Below, piece by piece: positions 8,665-56,164 of a stretch of 64,000 nucleotides of DNA. Numbering within the stretch: the first letter of the stretch is position 1; every line of letters starts with the position of its first letter. The notes under the pieces were generated by a model. That model was not told the DNA's origin. It made no database searches and saw only the letters and a list, made by a program, of their open reading frames with translations. Origin of the DNA: a virus; IMG/VR virus record IMGVR_UViG_3300048999_000052, positions 1 to 64,000 of that record; one strand, written 5' to 3'. Made by a program: the position numbers and the translations under genes.

Positions 8665-8695
8665 CAAAAACCCCAGCCGTCCTACTTGGCTGGGG
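8665..8695 (-). terminator. Rho-independent terminator overlapping the SPFH gene stop
   Basis: Eight-base stem (8671-8678 with 8688-8695) with the stop codon of the lipoprotein gene in the loop, followed leftward by TTTTTGC. It ends the transcript of the 8682-12336 gene group and isolates the leader at 8332-8664. Confidence 0.8.
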
Positions 8696-9599
8696 TGTAG
8701 TTGATGGACCCGCCAGCTGGTACCGGCAGGAACGGGATGTTGCCCTTGTTCATGGCATCCCGAAGTAGTTGGAGCTGCTGCAGCTGCAGGAAGCCCTGCA
8801 CGCCGTACAGCTTGATCAGGTCCGCCTGGCTCTGCGCCTGCGACTGCTGAGTCGAGTTGCGCGTGGCCTGAGCGGCCGAGTCGGCCTTGGCGTCAGAGAT
8901 GCTGCTCGGCGGCTGGGCCTGGTTCAGGCTGATGCTGAACTGACCGCAGTCGTCGCTGCTGTTGGGCTTGTAGTTCGGCTTACAAAAGTACGGCTCACCG
9001 CCGGTGACCTGCTCGATCGACTTGACGATCTGCTCGGCGGCCTTCTTCTGCCACTCGTTCTTCTTGGCCGCGTCGCCGGTCAGGTCGTCGACGGTATAGT
9101 CCAGGGTGACCCGGTCCAGAGCGTTCTCCACCGGGACGCCGATGTACTTGGCCAGCATGTCGTTCCACTTGTCGAGCCCGTGATCAGTCGGTCCGAAGGC
9201 CGTGCCGATCTGTTCGTGGAACTTGCGGAGGATGTCCTCCTTGTCGTTCAGGGTGAAATAAACGGCGCCTTGCACGGTCATCTTGATCCCGCCCTTGGCG
9301 AGGACCTCGATGGCACCGCGCTCGGCGCCGGGGGTGTTGTCCAGGAACTGGTAGTCCCGGGAGTTCACTGGGTAGCGGTACTCGTCGTCGTTGGCTCCCT
9401 TGCCACCGGTACGGGTTCCCGCGGGGATGTACTTCTTGAAGTCCTTGGCGTGGAGTCCGCCGTGGTAGATCAGAGCTGCCTGATCAACCGGGGTAGAAAC
9501 GCTGCACGCTGCGGTGCCCATGAGGAGGGCGCCAGCCGCGGCAATGGCCAAGGCGATCCGCCCGCCCCTTTCGGGGCGAGGGAACTTGAAGTTTTTCAC
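8682..9599 (-). CDS. SPFH/band-7-like lipoprotein, 305 aa
   Basis: The N-terminus has basic residues, a hydrophobic run and a lipobox (LLMGTAAC, Cys about residue 32), so it should be exported and lipid-anchored. The body resembles SPFH (stomatin/prohibitin) domains: a beta-rich first half with a VYFTLND segment, an amphipathic helical second half, and an Ala/Gln-rich helix (AQATRNSTQQSQAQSQADL) followed by LQLQQLQLLRDAM. SPFH-type proteins occur in several large actinophages as hypotheticals. Family assignment is by pattern only. An ATG start overlaps the stop of the next gene by one base. Confidence 0.7.
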   Translation of the reverse strand: MKNFKFPRPERGGRIALAIAAAGALLMGTAACSVSTPVDQAALIYHGGLHAKDFKKYIPAGTRTGGKGANDDEYRYPVNSRDYQFLDNTPGAERGAIEVLAKGGIKMTVQGAVYFTLNDKEDILRKFHEQIGTAFGPTDHGLDKWNDMLAKYIGVPVENALDRVTLDYTVDDLTGDAAKKNEWQKKAAEQIVKSIEQVTGGEPYFCKPNYKPNSSDDCGQFSISLNQAQPPSSISDAKADSAAQATRNSTQQSQAQSQADLIKLYGVQGFLQLQQLQLLRDAMNKGNIPFLPVPAGGSINYTPAK

Positions 9600-9904
9600 T
9601 ACAGATTGCTCCTTGCTGACGAGCGAGCGGCCTGCTCGCTTCGATGGGTGGTAATGGCGATCAGGATCGGGTCGGCCAAGTTAGGGCACTCGCTTTGCCA
9701 CAACTTGCACAGATCCACGATCTTCTCGTTGAGCTGGTCCTCAGCCGCCAGCTCAGCGATTTGGCGATCAACCTTGCGCTGTAGGACTCGCTTCGGAGCG
9801 AGCCGGTCGTGCCTGGTGCTGTACCTGTACACCAGGAAGATCCCGAGTGCGATCAACAGAATGACCAGCACCGGGACCAAGAAGTATTTGGCGAGAGTGA
9901 GCAT
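9599..9904 (-). CDS. Single-helix membrane protein, 101 aa
   Basis: ATG 9904 overlaps the upstream stop (ATGA). One transmembrane helix near the N-terminus (YFLVPVLVILLIALGIFLVY) is followed by a basic, probably coiled-coil tail (APKRVLQRKVDRQIAELAAED). Sits between the SPFH lipoprotein and the three paralogues with zero spacing, so it probably works with the lipoprotein. Function unknown. Confidence 0.8.
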   Translation of the reverse strand: MLTLAKYFLVPVLVILLIALGIFLVYRYSTRHDRLAPKRVLQRKVDRQIAELAAEDQLNEKIVDLCKLWQSECPNLADPILIAITTHRSEQAARSSARSNL

Positions 9905-10278
9905 CAATCCAGTCCTACTGTGTGGTTCGAGCTGAAGACCTCGAACGGGCCGAAGTCGTCCAAGAACCCTCGGGTCCACGGCCAAGACCCGTCCCTGGCC
10001 ACGCTGCTGCCGGTCAACATCCGCCACCCGTTCTTGGATCGGGTCCAGAGGTTGCCCTTGCGATCCGCAAGGATCGAGTTGTGATCCGGCTCGTCCGGGA
10101 TCGGCTTGGGGTGAATCCGATCGATCTGGTCGCGGCTGATATCGAACCGGACCCGATCGCCCATCTTGCTCTGTCGGGCCACAGTGACGTAGTTGTCGCC
10201 CGGGGGTGCGTCGTACTCCACCGAGCAGAGGACCGAGACGCGATCGCCCTTTCTCAACTCCTGTTCGTTGTCAGTCAC
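9904..10278 (-). CDS. Paralogue 1 of the EPD/YGPFDE family, 124 aa
   Basis: GTG 10278 in a GTGA overlap with paralogue 2, with GGAGAG upstream. The N-terminus is beta-rich (ELRKGDRVSVLCSVEYDAPPG). The C-terminal 65 residues carry the module shared with the next two genes: P-x-P-I-P-D-E-P-D, an IL strand, W-x-x-x-x-x-x-W, then W...FGPFEVF. It lacks the N-terminal Cys-His-Cys repeats, so it is the shortest version. Unknown function; a ligand- or sugar-binding beta domain is possible. Confidence 0.75.
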   Translation of the reverse strand: MTDNEQELRKGDRVSVLCSVEYDAPPGDNYVTVARQSKMGDRVRFDISRDQIDRIHPKPIPDEPDHNSILADRKGNLWTRSKNGWRMLTGSSVARDGSWPWTRGFLDDFGPFEVFSSNHTVGLD

Positions 10279-10886
10279 TTGATCTCTCCGGTTGGTTTGA
10301 ACTCGTCGAACGGACCGTAGTTTTCCCAGACGTCGGGCCACTCCAGTCCGGTGTCGAACTTCTCGTCGCCGATCACCTGCCAGACGCCACCCGTGAACCC
10401 GAATAGCTGACCAGCTTTGCTCTTCAGCAGCGACTTGCGGTCGGGCTCGTCTGGGATTGGCGCCGGAGTGCGTCCGAGGATGTCGGCTTTGGATACGGCG
10501 ATTGAGTGCGAGCCGTGAGCGTCTTTGATCGCCACGGCTATTGATTTGTGCTGGGCTCTGTCCTTTCCTGCGATCCGACCCCGGATCAGCACGTACTCGC
10601 CGACGTCGTAGTACGGCGCCCAACGGTGGCTTGAGCCGCTGGTACTGATGGTGCTGCGCGTGGCGGGAGTCTTGGTGCAACCCCCGCCGGCGGCGATGTG
10701 CCCGTCGTTGTCGCAGATCCACTTCTGGGCTCGCTCTCCAGGCAGCTTGTCCTCGACCAGCCCGACCAACACCAGTGGATAGGGGTGGCAATCGGAGTCG
10801 TACAGAGCAGTATCGCTGTACGGAACTTTGGTGCAGTTCTTCTCCAGGACGACGTGTTTGGCCTGGTGACAGATGTAGTAGGTCAT
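10275..10886 (-). CDS. Paralogue 2 with two Cys-His-Cys repeats, 203 aa
   Basis: The N-terminal half holds two copies of a short motif: YYICHQAKHVVLEKNCTK and KWICDNDGHIAAGGGCTK. The C-terminal half carries the shared module PIPDEPD ... W..IGD ... WENYGPFDEF. The middle is beta-rich. ATG 10886 overlaps the stop of paralogue 3 (ATGA). Metal binding by the Cys/His repeats is inferred from spacing. No signal peptide, so probably cytoplasmic. Confidence 0.8.
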   Translation of the reverse strand: MTYYICHQAKHVVLEKNCTKVPYSDTALYDSDCHPYPLVLVGLVEDKLPGERAQKWICDNDGHIAAGGGCTKTPATRSTISTSGSSHRWAPYYDVGEYVLIRGRIAGKDRAQHKSIAVAIKDAHGSHSIAVSKADILGRTPAPIPDEPDRKSLLKSKAGQLFGFTGGVWQVIGDEKFDTGLEWPDVWENYGPFDEFKPTGEIK

Positions 10887-12154
10887 CAGCTGATCCGGCC
10901 CTTCGGGCAGTACTCATCGAACGGACCGTAGAGGCGCCAGACCGTGTCCCAGTCGAAGGACTTGTCGGTGCCTACCATGTGCCACGTCTCCCGGTCCTGT
11001 CCCGACCAGAAGACCCCGTCGTCATCACGCAGGCTGATCAGGATGTTGCCGTGGTCCGGCTCCTCAGGCAGCGGCGACTGGGTCTTAGCGATGATCGCTG
11101 AGCTGTTCACCGGCTTGGTGAAGTGTGTGCCGTCCGGGTATTGGAACCGCAGCTCGTAGAAGTCCCTGCCAGCAGCCGCCCCGGTGACGACCTGAGCCCG
11201 GACCAGTACCCAGTCCTCGTACTTGACCTCGGAGTCGTACTCGGCCAGGATCGCACCGGGGCGGCCCCTAGTCAGCAAGCTGGGCTTGTCCTGGAACTCG
11301 ACCGGGTCGGTTGTTACCAATCCGAGCAGTTCGGCGTTCTCCGGCTTGGCCAGCTCCTCGGCTACCTGAGTGGCCAGTGGAGTGACGACATTCGGATTCT
11401 TCCCATGCAGGTACTCGCCGGTGGTGACCAGCTCATCATCATCTGCGCCGACGATGGCTTCAGCCACCTGAGCTGCGTAGCTCTTCGGCGGGGTGTAGCG
11501 CACGTACGGCGAGCGCTGGCCCTTCTTGAAGGCCGACGCGTCGTGGTAACCGTGGGTACTGTCCTTGGGCACGTGCTCGTACCCAACGGTGGTGCAGGCC
11601 TGCTTCTGCTGGACGTGGTCGTACAGCTGGCAGTAGTACCGCAGCGGGTCCACGGCCAGGTCGACGTCCACGTACTGCAGATCAACCGCGACCGGCGAGG
11701 TTGTCAGCTCCTTGGCGCCCGGCTTCTCGACCGGTCCGGGGTGTCCTTCTACTGGCTTAACACCGTTCCAGTCCACTCGATCCAAGACCTTGCCCATGAT
11801 CTCCTGGTTCATCCGCCAGTCCTCTACTGAGACCCAAGTGTGGGTAACTTCTTGGCCCCGGGCCTTGAGCGCGTCCAGTCGCAGCGTGTCAGGGGCCGCG
11901 AAGCCATTGGCGCCTTTGGTGCAGATCAGCTGGCGTTCGACGTGGTCGAGATCGGCGCACAAATATCGCTTCGACAAGTCCAACTTCACTTGCTTCTCCT
12001 TCGGTAGCCGGTATTCATCTGGCGAATGCAAAAGGACCGCAACCGGCCGGTGCGGTCCTTCGCATGTGTGGAACTCGGTTTCAGTCCACACTTTGGTCTG
12101 GATCAGTTGTCTTGGCACGCACCAGACGTACTTCCCGGTGCTGATCCAACTCAC
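10886..12154 (-). CDS. Paralogue 3, large repeat version, 422 aa
   Basis: GTG 12154 in a GTGA overlap. Carries the repeat three times: a degenerate copy at the N-terminus (KYVWCVPRQLIQTKVW), RYLCADLDHVERQLICTKG and RYYCQLYDHVQQKQACTT. It ends with the shared module (PLPEEPD ... W..VG ... WRLYGPFDEY). A strong terminator-like hairpin lies inside codons 31-43 (12026-12060). A second good start, GTG 11989 behind AAGGAG, lies just after it, so a shorter 367-residue product is possible. Function unknown. Confidence 0.8.
   Translation of the reverse strand: MSWISTGKYVWCVPRQLIQTKVWTETEFHTCEGPHRPVAVLLHSPDEYRLPKEKQVKLDLSKRYLCADLDHVERQLICTKGANGFAAPDTLRLDALKARGQEVTHTWVSVEDWRMNQEIMGKVLDRVDWNGVKPVEGHPGPVEKPGAKELTTSPVAVDLQYVDVDLAVDPLRYYCQLYDHVQQKQACTTVGYEHVPKDSTHGYHDASAFKKGQRSPYVRYTPPKSYAAQVAEAIVGADDDELVTTGEYLHGKNPNVVTPLATQVAEELAKPENAELLGLVTTDPVEFQDKPSLLTRGRPGAILAEYDSEVKYEDWVLVRAQVVTGAAAGRDFYELRFQYPDGTHFTKPVNSSAIIAKTQSPLPEEPDHGNILISLRDDDGVFWSGQDRETWHMVGTDKSFDWDTVWRLYGPFDEYCPKGRIS
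12022..12060 (-). terminator. Terminator-like hairpin inside the paralogue 3 gene
   Basis: Stem AAGGACCGCA/TGCGGTCCTT-type inverted repeat (about 12030-12040 with 12050-12060) followed leftward by TTTTGCAT, the same flank seen after hairpins near 17.7 and 27.2 kb. It sits in coding sequence near the 5' end of the gene and immediately before an alternative GTG start. May act as an attenuator. Confidence 0.55.
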
Positions 12155-12336
12155 TTAGCCTTCAGCTTCGCGCGGGCAGCCTTGGCTGCTGGCGTATTGC
12201 GCAGCTGATTGGCCCGGATGAGGTTCTGCTTGGTGTCACCGAGCGGGTCCACTTCACTCCAGGCTTCTTGGTGGATAGCCATGCGAGCGGCCCGCTCGTT
12301 GTTTTCTTCCCTTGCTTTCTTGAGCCACTTCAACAT
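12151..12336 (-). CDS. Small basic helical protein, 61 aa
   Basis: Nearly all Lys/Arg/Ala/Glu (LKWLKKAREENNERAARMA, then AAKAARAKLKAK), probably helical and nucleic-acid or membrane-surface binding. ATG 12336; stop overlaps the GTG of paralogue 3. No family recognised. Confidence 0.7.
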   Translation of the reverse strand: MLKWLKKAREENNERAARMAIHQEAWSEVDPLGDTKQNLIRANQLRNTPAAKAARAKLKAK

Positions 12337-12389: not shown

Positions 12390-12758
12390 TCACGCGGACT
12401 TTTCAGCGGCGACGGCGGCTTGCTTGAACCGCCGGTTACGGCGCTTGCCAGACTCGGCCCGTACCTCAGCACGGGTGATACGGTGCCCATCGTCTGGCAA
12501 GTTGAGGTAGTAGCCCTCAGGCTCGTCGTAGCTGTAGTTACCTACCAGATCCCAGGACGGGACCATGAATACCCCTCGTCGAAGCATTGAACAGCGCAGG
12601 CAATGGTCCACCTTCGTGCACTGAATCACGACCTTCTTGGTGTTCGAGACTAGCTCCTCGTCTCTGAGCCAGTCCCAAGCATGGCCGTACTCATGGCACG
12701 CGAGAAACTTTGGATTCAGTTTCTCCAGCGTGGATCGTTTCTGCGCCTGTCTTGGCAT
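12390..12758 (-). CDS. Phage HEYGHAWD-type zinc protein, 122 aa
   Basis: Begins with FLACHEYGHAWDW, then two Cys (QCTKVDHCLRC) and a basic tail (ESGKRRNRRFKQAA). The order C-x-x-x-GHAW ... C ... C..C ... is a recurring actinophage hypothetical family I recall without a function. A likely zinc site is formed by CHEYGH and CLRC. ATG 12758 meets the upstream stop. A short hairpin lies in the 53 bases downstream. Confidence 0.8.
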   Translation of the reverse strand: MPRQAQKRSTLEKLNPKFLACHEYGHAWDWLRDEELVSNTKKVVIQCTKVDHCLRCSMLRRGVFMVPSWDLVGNYSYDEPEGYYLNLPDDGHRITRAEVRAESGKRRNRRFKQAAVAAEKSA

Positions 12759-13706: not shown

Positions 13707-15299
13707 TTAGTTGATCTCCTCCGGCTTCAGCTCGATGACGCCGTAGTCGTTGACCTTGTGACGCTGCAGGGTGTCCTCCACGTGAGTCTCGATCAGGTCG
13801 CCGATGGTCAGTCGGTCGGCCTTGTCCTTGGCGTTGTCGTGCAGATCGTGCTGCGGCTTGAGCAGCAACGCGGCGGCGACGAAGTCGTCGGTGTTCAGCC
13901 GGTAGCGCAGGTCATCCTCACGGATGATCGCGGCCCGCTGTGCCGAGACGAAGGTCTCCTTGATGAAGGCAGGCTCGTAGCCCTTCATCGCCTGGTGGAC
14001 ACGCGGCCAGTCGATGTCGGTGGCCAGCTTGCCCTCGGGGATGGAGACCTTGATCAGCCGCTCGACACCGGCCTCGTCCAACGGGCCGATCTCGATGGCG
14101 GCGTCGATGCGACCGGCCCGGAGCATGCCCTTGTGCATGTCCGCGGCCTTGTTCGAGGTCATGACGACCATCACATCGTTGTTCTTCACCGCGATGCCGT
14201 CGAACAGCTCCAGCATCTTGGAGTTGTCCTCGTCGGTGCCAGCCGAGGCCAGCACATCGATATCCTCGATGCCGACGACGCACGGCGCGTACAGCGCCGC
14301 CGTCTGCATCACCTGGGTGAGGTTGTCCTTACCCGTGGTGCACTGGATGAAGGTCCAGCCGTTCTCGATCGCGGTCTGGGCGGTCAGGCCCAGGGCCAGC
14401 GACTTGCCGGTGCCGTACGGACCGTGCAGGACGGCCTTGACGTTGACCGGCAGACCTTCACGCTTCTGGAGTGCCGCAGTGCGGATGGTGCCCCAGATGG
14501 AGTTCTCCAGTCGGATGAAGACCTCCTCGGCGTACACGACCTTCTTGCGGTCGATCCGGTACGGGTCGATGAACATCGGCTTCTCCACGCCGACGAACGC
14601 CTTCCCGCGGTAGATGCTGTTGTCCTTCAGCTCCTGTTCGATCGCGACGAACAGGCCCTCGATCGCGGCACCGTGCTTCTTCGGCGCCTTGACCGTGAGC
14701 CGGAACAGCTCGCCGTACTGGTGGTCCCGGGTGACGCCGGTGGTGATCACGGCGTCCAGCAGCGGGAAGTTGATGTTGCCCCAGGGAACGCTGATCTCCT
14801 TGTTGACGTCCACCTCGATCTGGATTTTCTCGGGCGGCTGCGGCCCGAACATCGTCATCTGCATCGCACCCTCGCCGGCGGTGCCGAAGACCTTCTTCAG
14901 CGCCAGCTGCAGGGCGTTCGCGCCGTCCCACGGGCGGTACTTGAAGATGCGGGTGTAGGCGTGCTCCATCTCTTCGTTCTTCGCCGCCGCCGCGAGGATC
15001 TTGGCGGCTTCCGCCTTGGACATGGTCTGCGGGTCAGTCGGCAGACCGATCGCCGTGCCCGGGATGTAGTTGATGCCGGACTGGTCGGTGATCTTTTTGC
15101 CGCCCAGCTCCACCAGCAGGTGGTAGGTAGCCTGCCGGGCCAGCTCCTGGGCCTCTTCGAAGGTCTGCGGGCGAGCGGCGATGTCCTGAACGTTCATGGT
15201 CACGCGGGTATCTCCTTGTTCAGTCTTGCTGATGAGGTCGTGCAGTCCGCTGCTGAATCCGGTCAGCAGCCCCCGTCGAGGGTCGAGCTCTTCGCTCAC
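13707..15299 (-). CDS. AAA+ ATPase, 530 aa
   Basis: C-terminal AAA+ module: Walker A HGPYGTGKS near residue 292, Walker B VVGIEDIDVLA near 341, a sensor-1-like MVVMTSN, and LRAGRIDAAIEI supplying the arginine-finger/second-region signature of the classic AAA clade (LRxGR). The N-terminal 280 residues are an unrecognised adaptor domain. Classic AAA proteins remodel or unfold protein complexes. The phage copy may remodel host or replication proteins (inference). It starts at GTG 15299 in a GTGA overlap. A 578-codon open frame on the opposite strand is a shadow. Confidence 0.9.
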   Translation of the reverse strand: MSEELDPRRGLLTGFSSGLHDLISKTEQGDTRVTMNVQDIAARPQTFEEAQELARQATYHLLVELGGKKITDQSGINYIPGTAIGLPTDPQTMSKAEAAKILAAAAKNEEMEHAYTRIFKYRPWDGANALQLALKKVFGTAGEGAMQMTMFGPQPPEKIQIEVDVNKEISVPWGNINFPLLDAVITTGVTRDHQYGELFRLTVKAPKKHGAAIEGLFVAIEQELKDNSIYRGKAFVGVEKPMFIDPYRIDRKKVVYAEEVFIRLENSIWGTIRTAALQKREGLPVNVKAVLHGPYGTGKSLALGLTAQTAIENGWTFIQCTTGKDNLTQVMQTAALYAPCVVGIEDIDVLASAGTDEDNSKMLELFDGIAVKNNDVMVVMTSNKAADMHKGMLRAGRIDAAIEIGPLDEAGVERLIKVSIPEGKLATDIDWPRVHQAMKGYEPAFIKETFVSAQRAAIIREDDLRYRLNTDDFVAAALLLKPQHDLHDNAKDKADRLTIGDLIETHVEDTLQRHKVNDYGVIELKPEEIN

Positions 15300-54673: not shown

Positions 54674-56164
54674 ATGCCCATCGTCTTGGACCGCCCGCCA
54701 AGAACCGACGACGAACTGTGGCATCTGGTTCGGGCGTTGTGGGGTCACACCATTCCGCGCGTGAAAGTGTGCCCGGAGCACAACGCCCCGTTCGAGGCCT
54801 TCTCGACGGCGTACTTCTCCAAGGAGCCGATGTCGCTGATCCACGGCTCGCGTGGTCTGTCGGGCAAATCCCGACTGCTCTCGATCCTGGGTCTGACCAA
54901 AGCTGCCGTTTTGGGCTCGGACGTCAACATCGTCGGTGGCTCGCTGAACCAGTCGAACAACATCCACGAGACCATGCGGGACGCCTGGGAGCACGAACAC
55001 GCGCCCAAGTACCTGATCAAGGACGAGTCGATGACGATCGTCCGGCTGCGCAACGGGGCCAAGATCCGCCCGCTGACGGCATCGCAGAAAACCGTCCGTG
55101 GTCCGCACCCGCCCACGCTGCTGCTGGATGAGATCGACGAAATGGACCAGGCCATCTTGGACGCGGCCCTGGGCCAGCCGATGCCGCAGAAGAACTATCT
55201 GGGTGAGACGATCCCAGCGGTGACGCTGATGTCGTCCACCTGGCAGTACCCGGACAAGACCTTCGCGACCATGTACCAGCGGTTCCAAGACGAGGACCTA
55301 CCGATCTTCTCCTGGTGCATGAAGGACACCTCGAACCCGGTGGATGGCTGGTTGGACCCAGCTTTCATCGAGCAGAAGAAGCGCGAGATCCCGGCCGAGA
55401 TGTGGCGGGTGGAGTACGAGCTGGGTGAGCCTTCGATCGGCACCCGTGCCTTCGACTCGGAGATGGTGGAGAAGACGTTCTCCGAGCCATTGCCCGAGCC
55501 GAAGAAGATCGCCAAGGACTTCGAGCAGTACATGATCCACGACTACCGGATGGACACCGACTACGTCATCGCCGCTGACTGGGCCAAGGAGCAGGACTTC
55601 ACCGTGATCACGGTCTGGTCTTGCACCAACCTGCCGATGCGGTTGTGCTACTACCTACGGCTGCGTAGGCGCCCGTACCCGGTGATGATCGAGTACTACA
55701 ACAAGCTGATGCGCAAGTACAACGCCGAGGGCATCCACGACGCCACCGGTCTAGGCAACGTGGTGGGTGACTACCTGGACACCCGGGTTCGCGGCTTCTT
55801 GATGACCGGTGCGCAGCGCGACAACATGCTGAGCGAGTACGTGGCTGCGGTGGAGAACGACAAGGTCCGCGCAGCCCGCATCCCGTCGATCTACAAGAAT
55901 CACCTCTACTGTTCGGTAGAGGCGATGTACTCCAGAGCCAAGGAGTTCCATCTCCCCGACGAAGTGTGTTCATCTGCGCTGGCCTGGAAGCTGGTCAGTC
56001 AGCGTCCACAAGCGGTGCTACCGCTGATGATCTCGGGTCAGGACGACTCGAACTGGATGCGTCGGCACGTGGATGCCAACACCAAGTCCGGGCGGAAGAC
56101 CGCCTGGGACGTCGGTGAAGTGCACAAGTTGGACAACAGGGACGAGTACTCCCTGATGGTCTGA
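54674..56164 (+). CDS. terL: Large terminase subunit, 496 aa
   Basis: ATPase: Walker A SRGLSGKSRLL near residue 59, Walker B LLLDEIDEMD near 149, motif III-like TLMSSTW. Nuclease (RNase H fold): YVIAADWAKEQDFTVI near 297 (first Asp), then HDATGLGNVVGDYLD near 357 (second Asp). Motor that cuts concatemers and pumps DNA into the procapsid; works with the portal just downstream. Assigned with good confidence by motif order. Confidence 0.93.
   Translation: MPIVLDRPPRTDDELWHLVRALWGHTIPRVKVCPEHNAPFEAFSTAYFSKEPMSLIHGSRGLSGKSRLLSILGLTKAAVLGSDVNIVGGSLNQSNNIHETMRDAWEHEHAPKYLIKDESMTIVRLRNGAKIRPLTASQKTVRGPHPPTLLLDEIDEMDQAILDAALGQPMPQKNYLGETIPAVTLMSSTWQYPDKTFATMYQRFQDEDLPIFSWCMKDTSNPVDGWLDPAFIEQKKREIPAEMWRVEYELGEPSIGTRAFDSEMVEKTFSEPLPEPKKIAKDFEQYMIHDYRMDTDYVIAADWAKEQDFTVITVWSCTNLPMRLCYYLRLRRRPYPVMIEYYNKLMRKYNAEGIHDATGLGNVVGDYLDTRVRGFLMTGAQRDNMLSEYVAAVENDKVRAARIPSIYKNHLYCSVEAMYSRAKEFHLPDEVCSSALAWKLVSQRPQAVLPLMISGQDDSNWMRRHVDANTKSGRKTAWDVGEVHKLDNRDEYSLMV

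What the first reader, a model, noticed from the sequence alone, without database searches (positions are those of the whole stretch)
9904..12154. Three tandem paralogues with a Cys-His-Cys repeat and shared EPD/YGPFDE module
All three share a C-terminal module (P-x-P-[IL]-P-[DE]-E-P-D ... W ... W..YGPFDE). Two also carry 0-3 copies of a short repeat (Y-x-C...H...CTK), five in all. Gene order and GTGA/ATGA overlaps indicate one unit with the SPFH lipoprotein and a membrane protein. I know no described family.
Basis: seen in the sequence. Interest (0 to 1): 0.65.

Follow-up and report, generated by a model that had tools for sequence, protein, structure and literature searches.

The report
Three phage paralogues with zinc-like repeats
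A divergent phage, probably of actinobacteria, carries three neighbouring genes made by duplication; their shared tail is a divergent version of a motif common in actinobacterial phages, while a short Cys-His-Cys repeat in two of them is so far seen nowhere else.

Summary
P1 (422 aa), P2 (203 aa) and P3 (124 aa) share a C-terminal module of about 110 residues (pairwise BLASTP E 9e-14, 1e-9, 1e-6). P1 and P2 also carry a strict repeat, [YW]-x-C-x4-H-[VI]-x5-C-T. There are four copies, two in each protein, not five; shuffled DNA gives none. The genes are packed with overlapping stops and starts, from a 61-aa ORF through P1-P3 to a one-helix membrane protein and an SPFH lipoprotein.

"No described family" is only partly right. 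The last 55 residues of the module look like a divergent member of a recurrent actinobacteriophage motif (P..G...DR.GD.W.....GW...GPF), found for example in PHROG 20128. A profile built only from outside phages ranks P3 and P2 first among all reading frames of the contig, although the signal weakens when seed sequences found with P3 are removed. The link to the SPFH pair looks incidental, since phages with that pair lack the module.

The CHC repeat has no relative in the collections searched. I read it as a small zinc-stabilised unit on a cytosolic adaptor protein; that is inference. Structure predictions failed (pLDDT 50 and 35). New variant of a known kind; interest about 0.3.

The parts
10886..12154 (-). 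P1: 422-aa protein, GTG start, last base of its TGA stop shared with the ATG of P2; two CHC repeats and the C-terminal module
10275..10886 (-). P2: 203-aa protein; two CHC repeats and the C-terminal module
9904..10278 (-). P3: 124-aa protein, GTG start overlapping the stop of P2 (GTGA); the module alone
11919..11965 (-). CHC repeat in P1 (YLCADLDHVERQLICT)
11592..11638 (-). CHC repeat in P1 (YYCQLYDHVQQKQACT)
10831..10877 (-). CHC repeat in P2 (YICHQAKHVVLEKNCT)
10675..10721 (-). CHC repeat in P2 (WICDNDGHIAAGGGCT)
10889..11248 (-). module of P1 (residues 303-422): first half without known relatives, then P.P.P.EPD...W...W..YGPFDE tail
10278..10628 (-). module of P2 (residues 87-203)
9928..10092 (-). 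tail of P3 (residues 63-117) matching the recurrent actinophage motif
9599..9904 (-). 101-aa protein with one N-terminal membrane helix; its ATG overlaps the stop of P3 (TGATG)
   Evidence: weak PspB-like match
8682..9599 (-). SPFH/Band_7 protein with lipoprotein-like signal (LLMGTAAC)
12151..12336 (-). 61-aa ORF overlapping the start of P1 by GTGA

Best explanation
P1, P2 and P3 are tandem paralogues in a minus-strand accessory gene cluster of a divergent phage, probably of actinobacteria. Shown: all three end in a homologous module; P1 and P2 add two copies each of a strict 16-residue Cys-His-Cys repeat. Well supported for P3 and P2: the last ~55 residues of the module belong to a recurrent, freely attached actinophage motif. 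Inferred: the proteins are cytosolic adaptors. The module is a small strand-rich interaction domain that binds a host or phage partner. Each CHC repeat is a compact zinc-stabilised unit, with a downstream His such as [ST]HxW as possible fourth ligand, that extends the binding surface. Tandem duplication gave versions with and without the repeats.
For: Module homology. Tail motif: PHROG 20128 was the only PHROG hit of P3 (weak, E 0.05). The three-sequence profile finds Dardanus gp41 (E 8e-6 per record) and Reindeer gp51 (E 0.002). Dardanus gp41 itself matches PHROG 20128 at E 1e-23. An outside-only profile ranks P3 (E 4e-7) and P2 (E 5e-6) first in the contig, best of 900 shuffles E 0.4; hhalign probability 94.8%. 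Free attachment: in Catfish gp42 the motif precedes a weak KilAC-type domain, in Magritte gp3 it is N-terminal, in other phages C-terminal. Repeat: 4 matches, 0 in shuffles. No membrane helix in P1-P3.
Against: No structure supports the domain or zinc reading: pLDDT 50 for P3 and 35 for P2. The outside profile weakens when Dardanus and Anaya, both found by searching with P3, are left out (P3 5e-4, P2 2e-3), and a non-coding frame then scores 3e-3. P1's tail is only marginal. Three ligands per repeat is one short of a usual zinc site. Partner and function are unknown.
Confidence: 0.4

Rival explanations
1. The three proteins work with the downstream membrane protein and SPFH lipoprotein as one membrane-associated complex, for example a scaffold against envelope stress or superinfection.
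For: Five ORFs are packed with overlapping stops and starts. A small membrane protein next to an SPFH protein also occurs in phages E3 and PSonyx, and the membrane protein has a weak PspB-like match.
Against: The profile of the module finds nothing in E3, PSonyx or Firecracker, which carry the SPFH gene. P1-P3 have no membrane helix, and a lipoprotein would lie on the other side of the membrane.
Confidence: 0.2
2. The CHC repeats are worn-down zinc ribbons related to the 122-aa protein two genes upstream (12390-12758), which also has C-x4-H and a C-T-K; they may be structural remnants rather than working binding units.
For: CHEYGH and QCTKVDHCLRC in the 122-aa protein, a PHROG 4480 member (E 1e-6), resemble the repeat by eye.
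Against: Spacing between His and the second Cys differs widely (6 against over 20 residues); no statistical test was made, and the exact spacing kept in four copies speaks for selection.
Confidence: 0.2
3. The repeats bind no metal; the Cys residues pair as disulfides or are redox switches.
For: Each repeat has only three conserved possible ligands.
Against: No membrane helix or signal-like hydrophobic stretch was seen, so a reducing cytosol is expected; the invariant His has no role in a disulfide.
Confidence: 0.15

Closest known systems
PHROG 20128 (Gordonia phage Dardanus gp41 and relatives in Ruthgordonvirinae)
   Same: PDEPD...ADR.GD.W.....GW...GPF tail; profile match both ways
   Different: Their N-terminal part is coiled-coil-like, at least one (Catfish gp42) has a weak KilAC-like C-terminal part, and no CHC repeats were seen
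Other actinophage proteins with the same tail: Zeta1847 gp73, Reindeer gp51 (PHROG 15331), Ruthiejr gp78 (PHROG 12358), Antuna gp63
   Same: D..GD.W...W...GP core; Zeta1847 gp73 also has a separate half before the tail, as in the window module
   Different: Otherwise unrelated proteins; similarity of the first half to Zeta1847 is by eye only
SPFH/Band_7 lipoprotein with small membrane protein in phages E3 and PSonyx; SPFH protein in Corndogvirus phages
   Same: Same kind of neighbours as in the window
   Different: No module proteins there

Membership tests
Recurrent actinophage tail motif (PHROG 20128 and similar) | Profile match of the D..G..W / GW / GPF core (P3 and P2) | tested here: met
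   P3 and P2 first in the contig, E 4e-7 and 5e-6; 5e-4 and 2e-3 without seeds found through P3
Recurrent actinophage tail motif (PHROG 20128 and similar) | Same match for P1 | tested here: inconclusive
   domain E 0.0026 in a search of three proteins only, not among the top hits in the contig
PHROG 20128 as a whole-protein family | Significant match of the whole protein | tested here: not met
   P3 E 0.05 over residues 39-118 only; P1 and P2 no match
Any Pfam or NCBIfam family | Match above curated cut-off | tested here: not met
   no such match for P1-P3
Zinc-binding protein | Metal bound by the Cys and His residues | not testable with these tools
   structure model of P2 too poor to judge
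SPFH membrane complex | Conserved gene neighbourhood of module and SPFH gene | tested here: not met
   module absent from the E3, PSonyx and Firecracker records

The most novel reading that the evidence does not exclude
The 16-residue repeat [YW]-x-C-x4-H-[VI]-x5-C-T is a new minimal zinc-binding unit, used in more than one copy on phage adaptor proteins and not related to described zinc fingers.
Probability: 0.25. Interest if true: 0.5.

Novelty: new variant of a known kind. Interest (0 to 1): 0.3.

Why it matters
It ties an orphan protein set to a small motif that recurs, unnamed, on many otherwise unrelated actinobacteriophage proteins. A motif attached so freely should have one testable biochemical role, and finding it would help to annotate many phage proteins of unknown function. 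The CHC repeat is a clear, compact candidate for a metal-binding test.

Tried and rejected
Close relatives: peptide-pattern scans of IMG/VR with P1, with the module alignment and with the SPFH protein found none. DNA patterns for PxP[IL]P[DE]EPD and W..YGPF gave 54 contigs without a significant module match. A pattern for the repeat (GC-favoured codons, CTK form) gave 5 contigs, all in non-coding frames. The two genome-contig scans, with the AAA ATPase and with a tail pattern, gave no relative. A first outside profile, drawn mostly from Microbacterium and Arthrobacter members, did not pick out P1-P3. The Pseudomonas phage Dobby match of P2 is antisense to the annotated gene and was rejected. 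Fold search with the poor P3 model gave nothing significant. Searches of solved structures gave nothing below E 0.1. Homology of the P1 and P2 N-terminal regions beyond the repeat was tested and dropped. Promoter and terminator scans were uninformative.

Full report
Setting. The window is the first 64,000 bases of an 83,490-base virus record. It carries a DnaB-like helicase, a DNA polymerase, a portal protein and a weakly recognisable terminase. The terminase has no match among 50,697 phage records; the portal's best named matches are Arthrobacter phages. With a GC content of 61% this points to an actinobacterial host, but the host is not known.

The observation. P1, P2 and P3 are real consecutive ORFs and share a C-terminal module beyond chance. 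The Cys-His-Cys repeat is real and strict, four copies with identical spacing and none in shuffled DNA.

What the module is. P3's only PHROG match was a weak one to PHROG 20128. A consensus that I wrote from memory of actinophage proteins led to Microbacterium phage Antuna gp63 and, from there, to Arthrobacter, Rhodococcus, Curtobacterium and Mycobacterium phages. A search with P3's tail gave Gordonia phage Dardanus gp41 at E 2, which itself matches PHROG 20128 at E 1e-23. The profile of the three window modules finds Dardanus at E 8e-6 and Reindeer gp51 at E 0.002 among 17 phage records.

How firm is this. A profile from 13 outside sequences ranks P3 and P2 first in all six frames of the contig, E 4e-7 and 5e-6, while the best of 900 shuffles has 0.4. 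Dardanus and Anaya had been found with P3, so they favour the result. Without them P3 falls to 5e-4 and P2 to 2e-3, the best shuffle is 0.06, and a frame at 73405-73674, out of frame with the large ORF there, scores 3e-3. An earlier profile without the Gordonia group failed altogether. I take the relation as likely for P3 and P2, and for P1 through its clear kinship with P2.

The rest of the proteins. The first half of the module and the N-terminal parts have no relatives found. Two AlphaFold runs with three-sequence alignments failed (mean pLDDT 50.5 and 35.0); both suggest strands in the first half, which is at most a hint. No membrane helix is seen in P1-P3.

The neighbours. A small membrane protein and an SPFH lipoprotein follow in the same packed unit. 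SPFH relatives occur in Rhodococcus phage E3, Corynebacterium phage PSonyx and Corndogvirus phages, in E3 and PSonyx also next to a small membrane protein, without the module. The module and the SPFH pair are therefore separable.

Function. I commit, at 0.4, to cytosolic adaptor proteins with a small interaction module and, in two of them, zinc-stabilised repeats. Module kinship, the repeat and the motif's free attachment in other phages are shown; zinc, adaptor role and partner are inferred.

Limits. Bacterial genomes could not be searched with the profile because the record is viral. Collection scans need exact peptide or DNA patterns and miss distant relatives. No literature describing the tail motif was found in two searches, which is not proof that none exists.

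Noticed in passing
window 12390-12758 (-): 122-aa protein with zinc-ribbon-like CHEYGH and CTKVDHCLRC, matching PHROG 4480 at E 1e-6; it shares C-x4-H and CTK with the repeats by eye.
   Followed up: partly
window 13707-15299 (-): 530-aa AAA ATPase (PHROG 10440, E 4e-67) with relatives in Mycobacterium abscessus prophage prophiFSQJ01-1, McProf and four IMG/VR contigs.
   Followed up: partly
window 54674-56164 (+): Terminase large subunit by PHROG (E 1e-8) without any tblastn match among 50,697 phage records at E 1e-5: the phage is highly divergent.
   Followed up: no
window 9599-9904 (-): One-helix membrane protein with a weak PspB-like match (E 0.0012, far below the curated cut-off) beside an SPFH protein.
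   Followed up: no
contig 73405-73674 (+), beyond the window (locus L087): Frame that scores E 0.001-0.02 with the tail profiles and weakly with PHROG 20128; probably chance, as it is out of frame with the large ORF there.
   Followed up: partly
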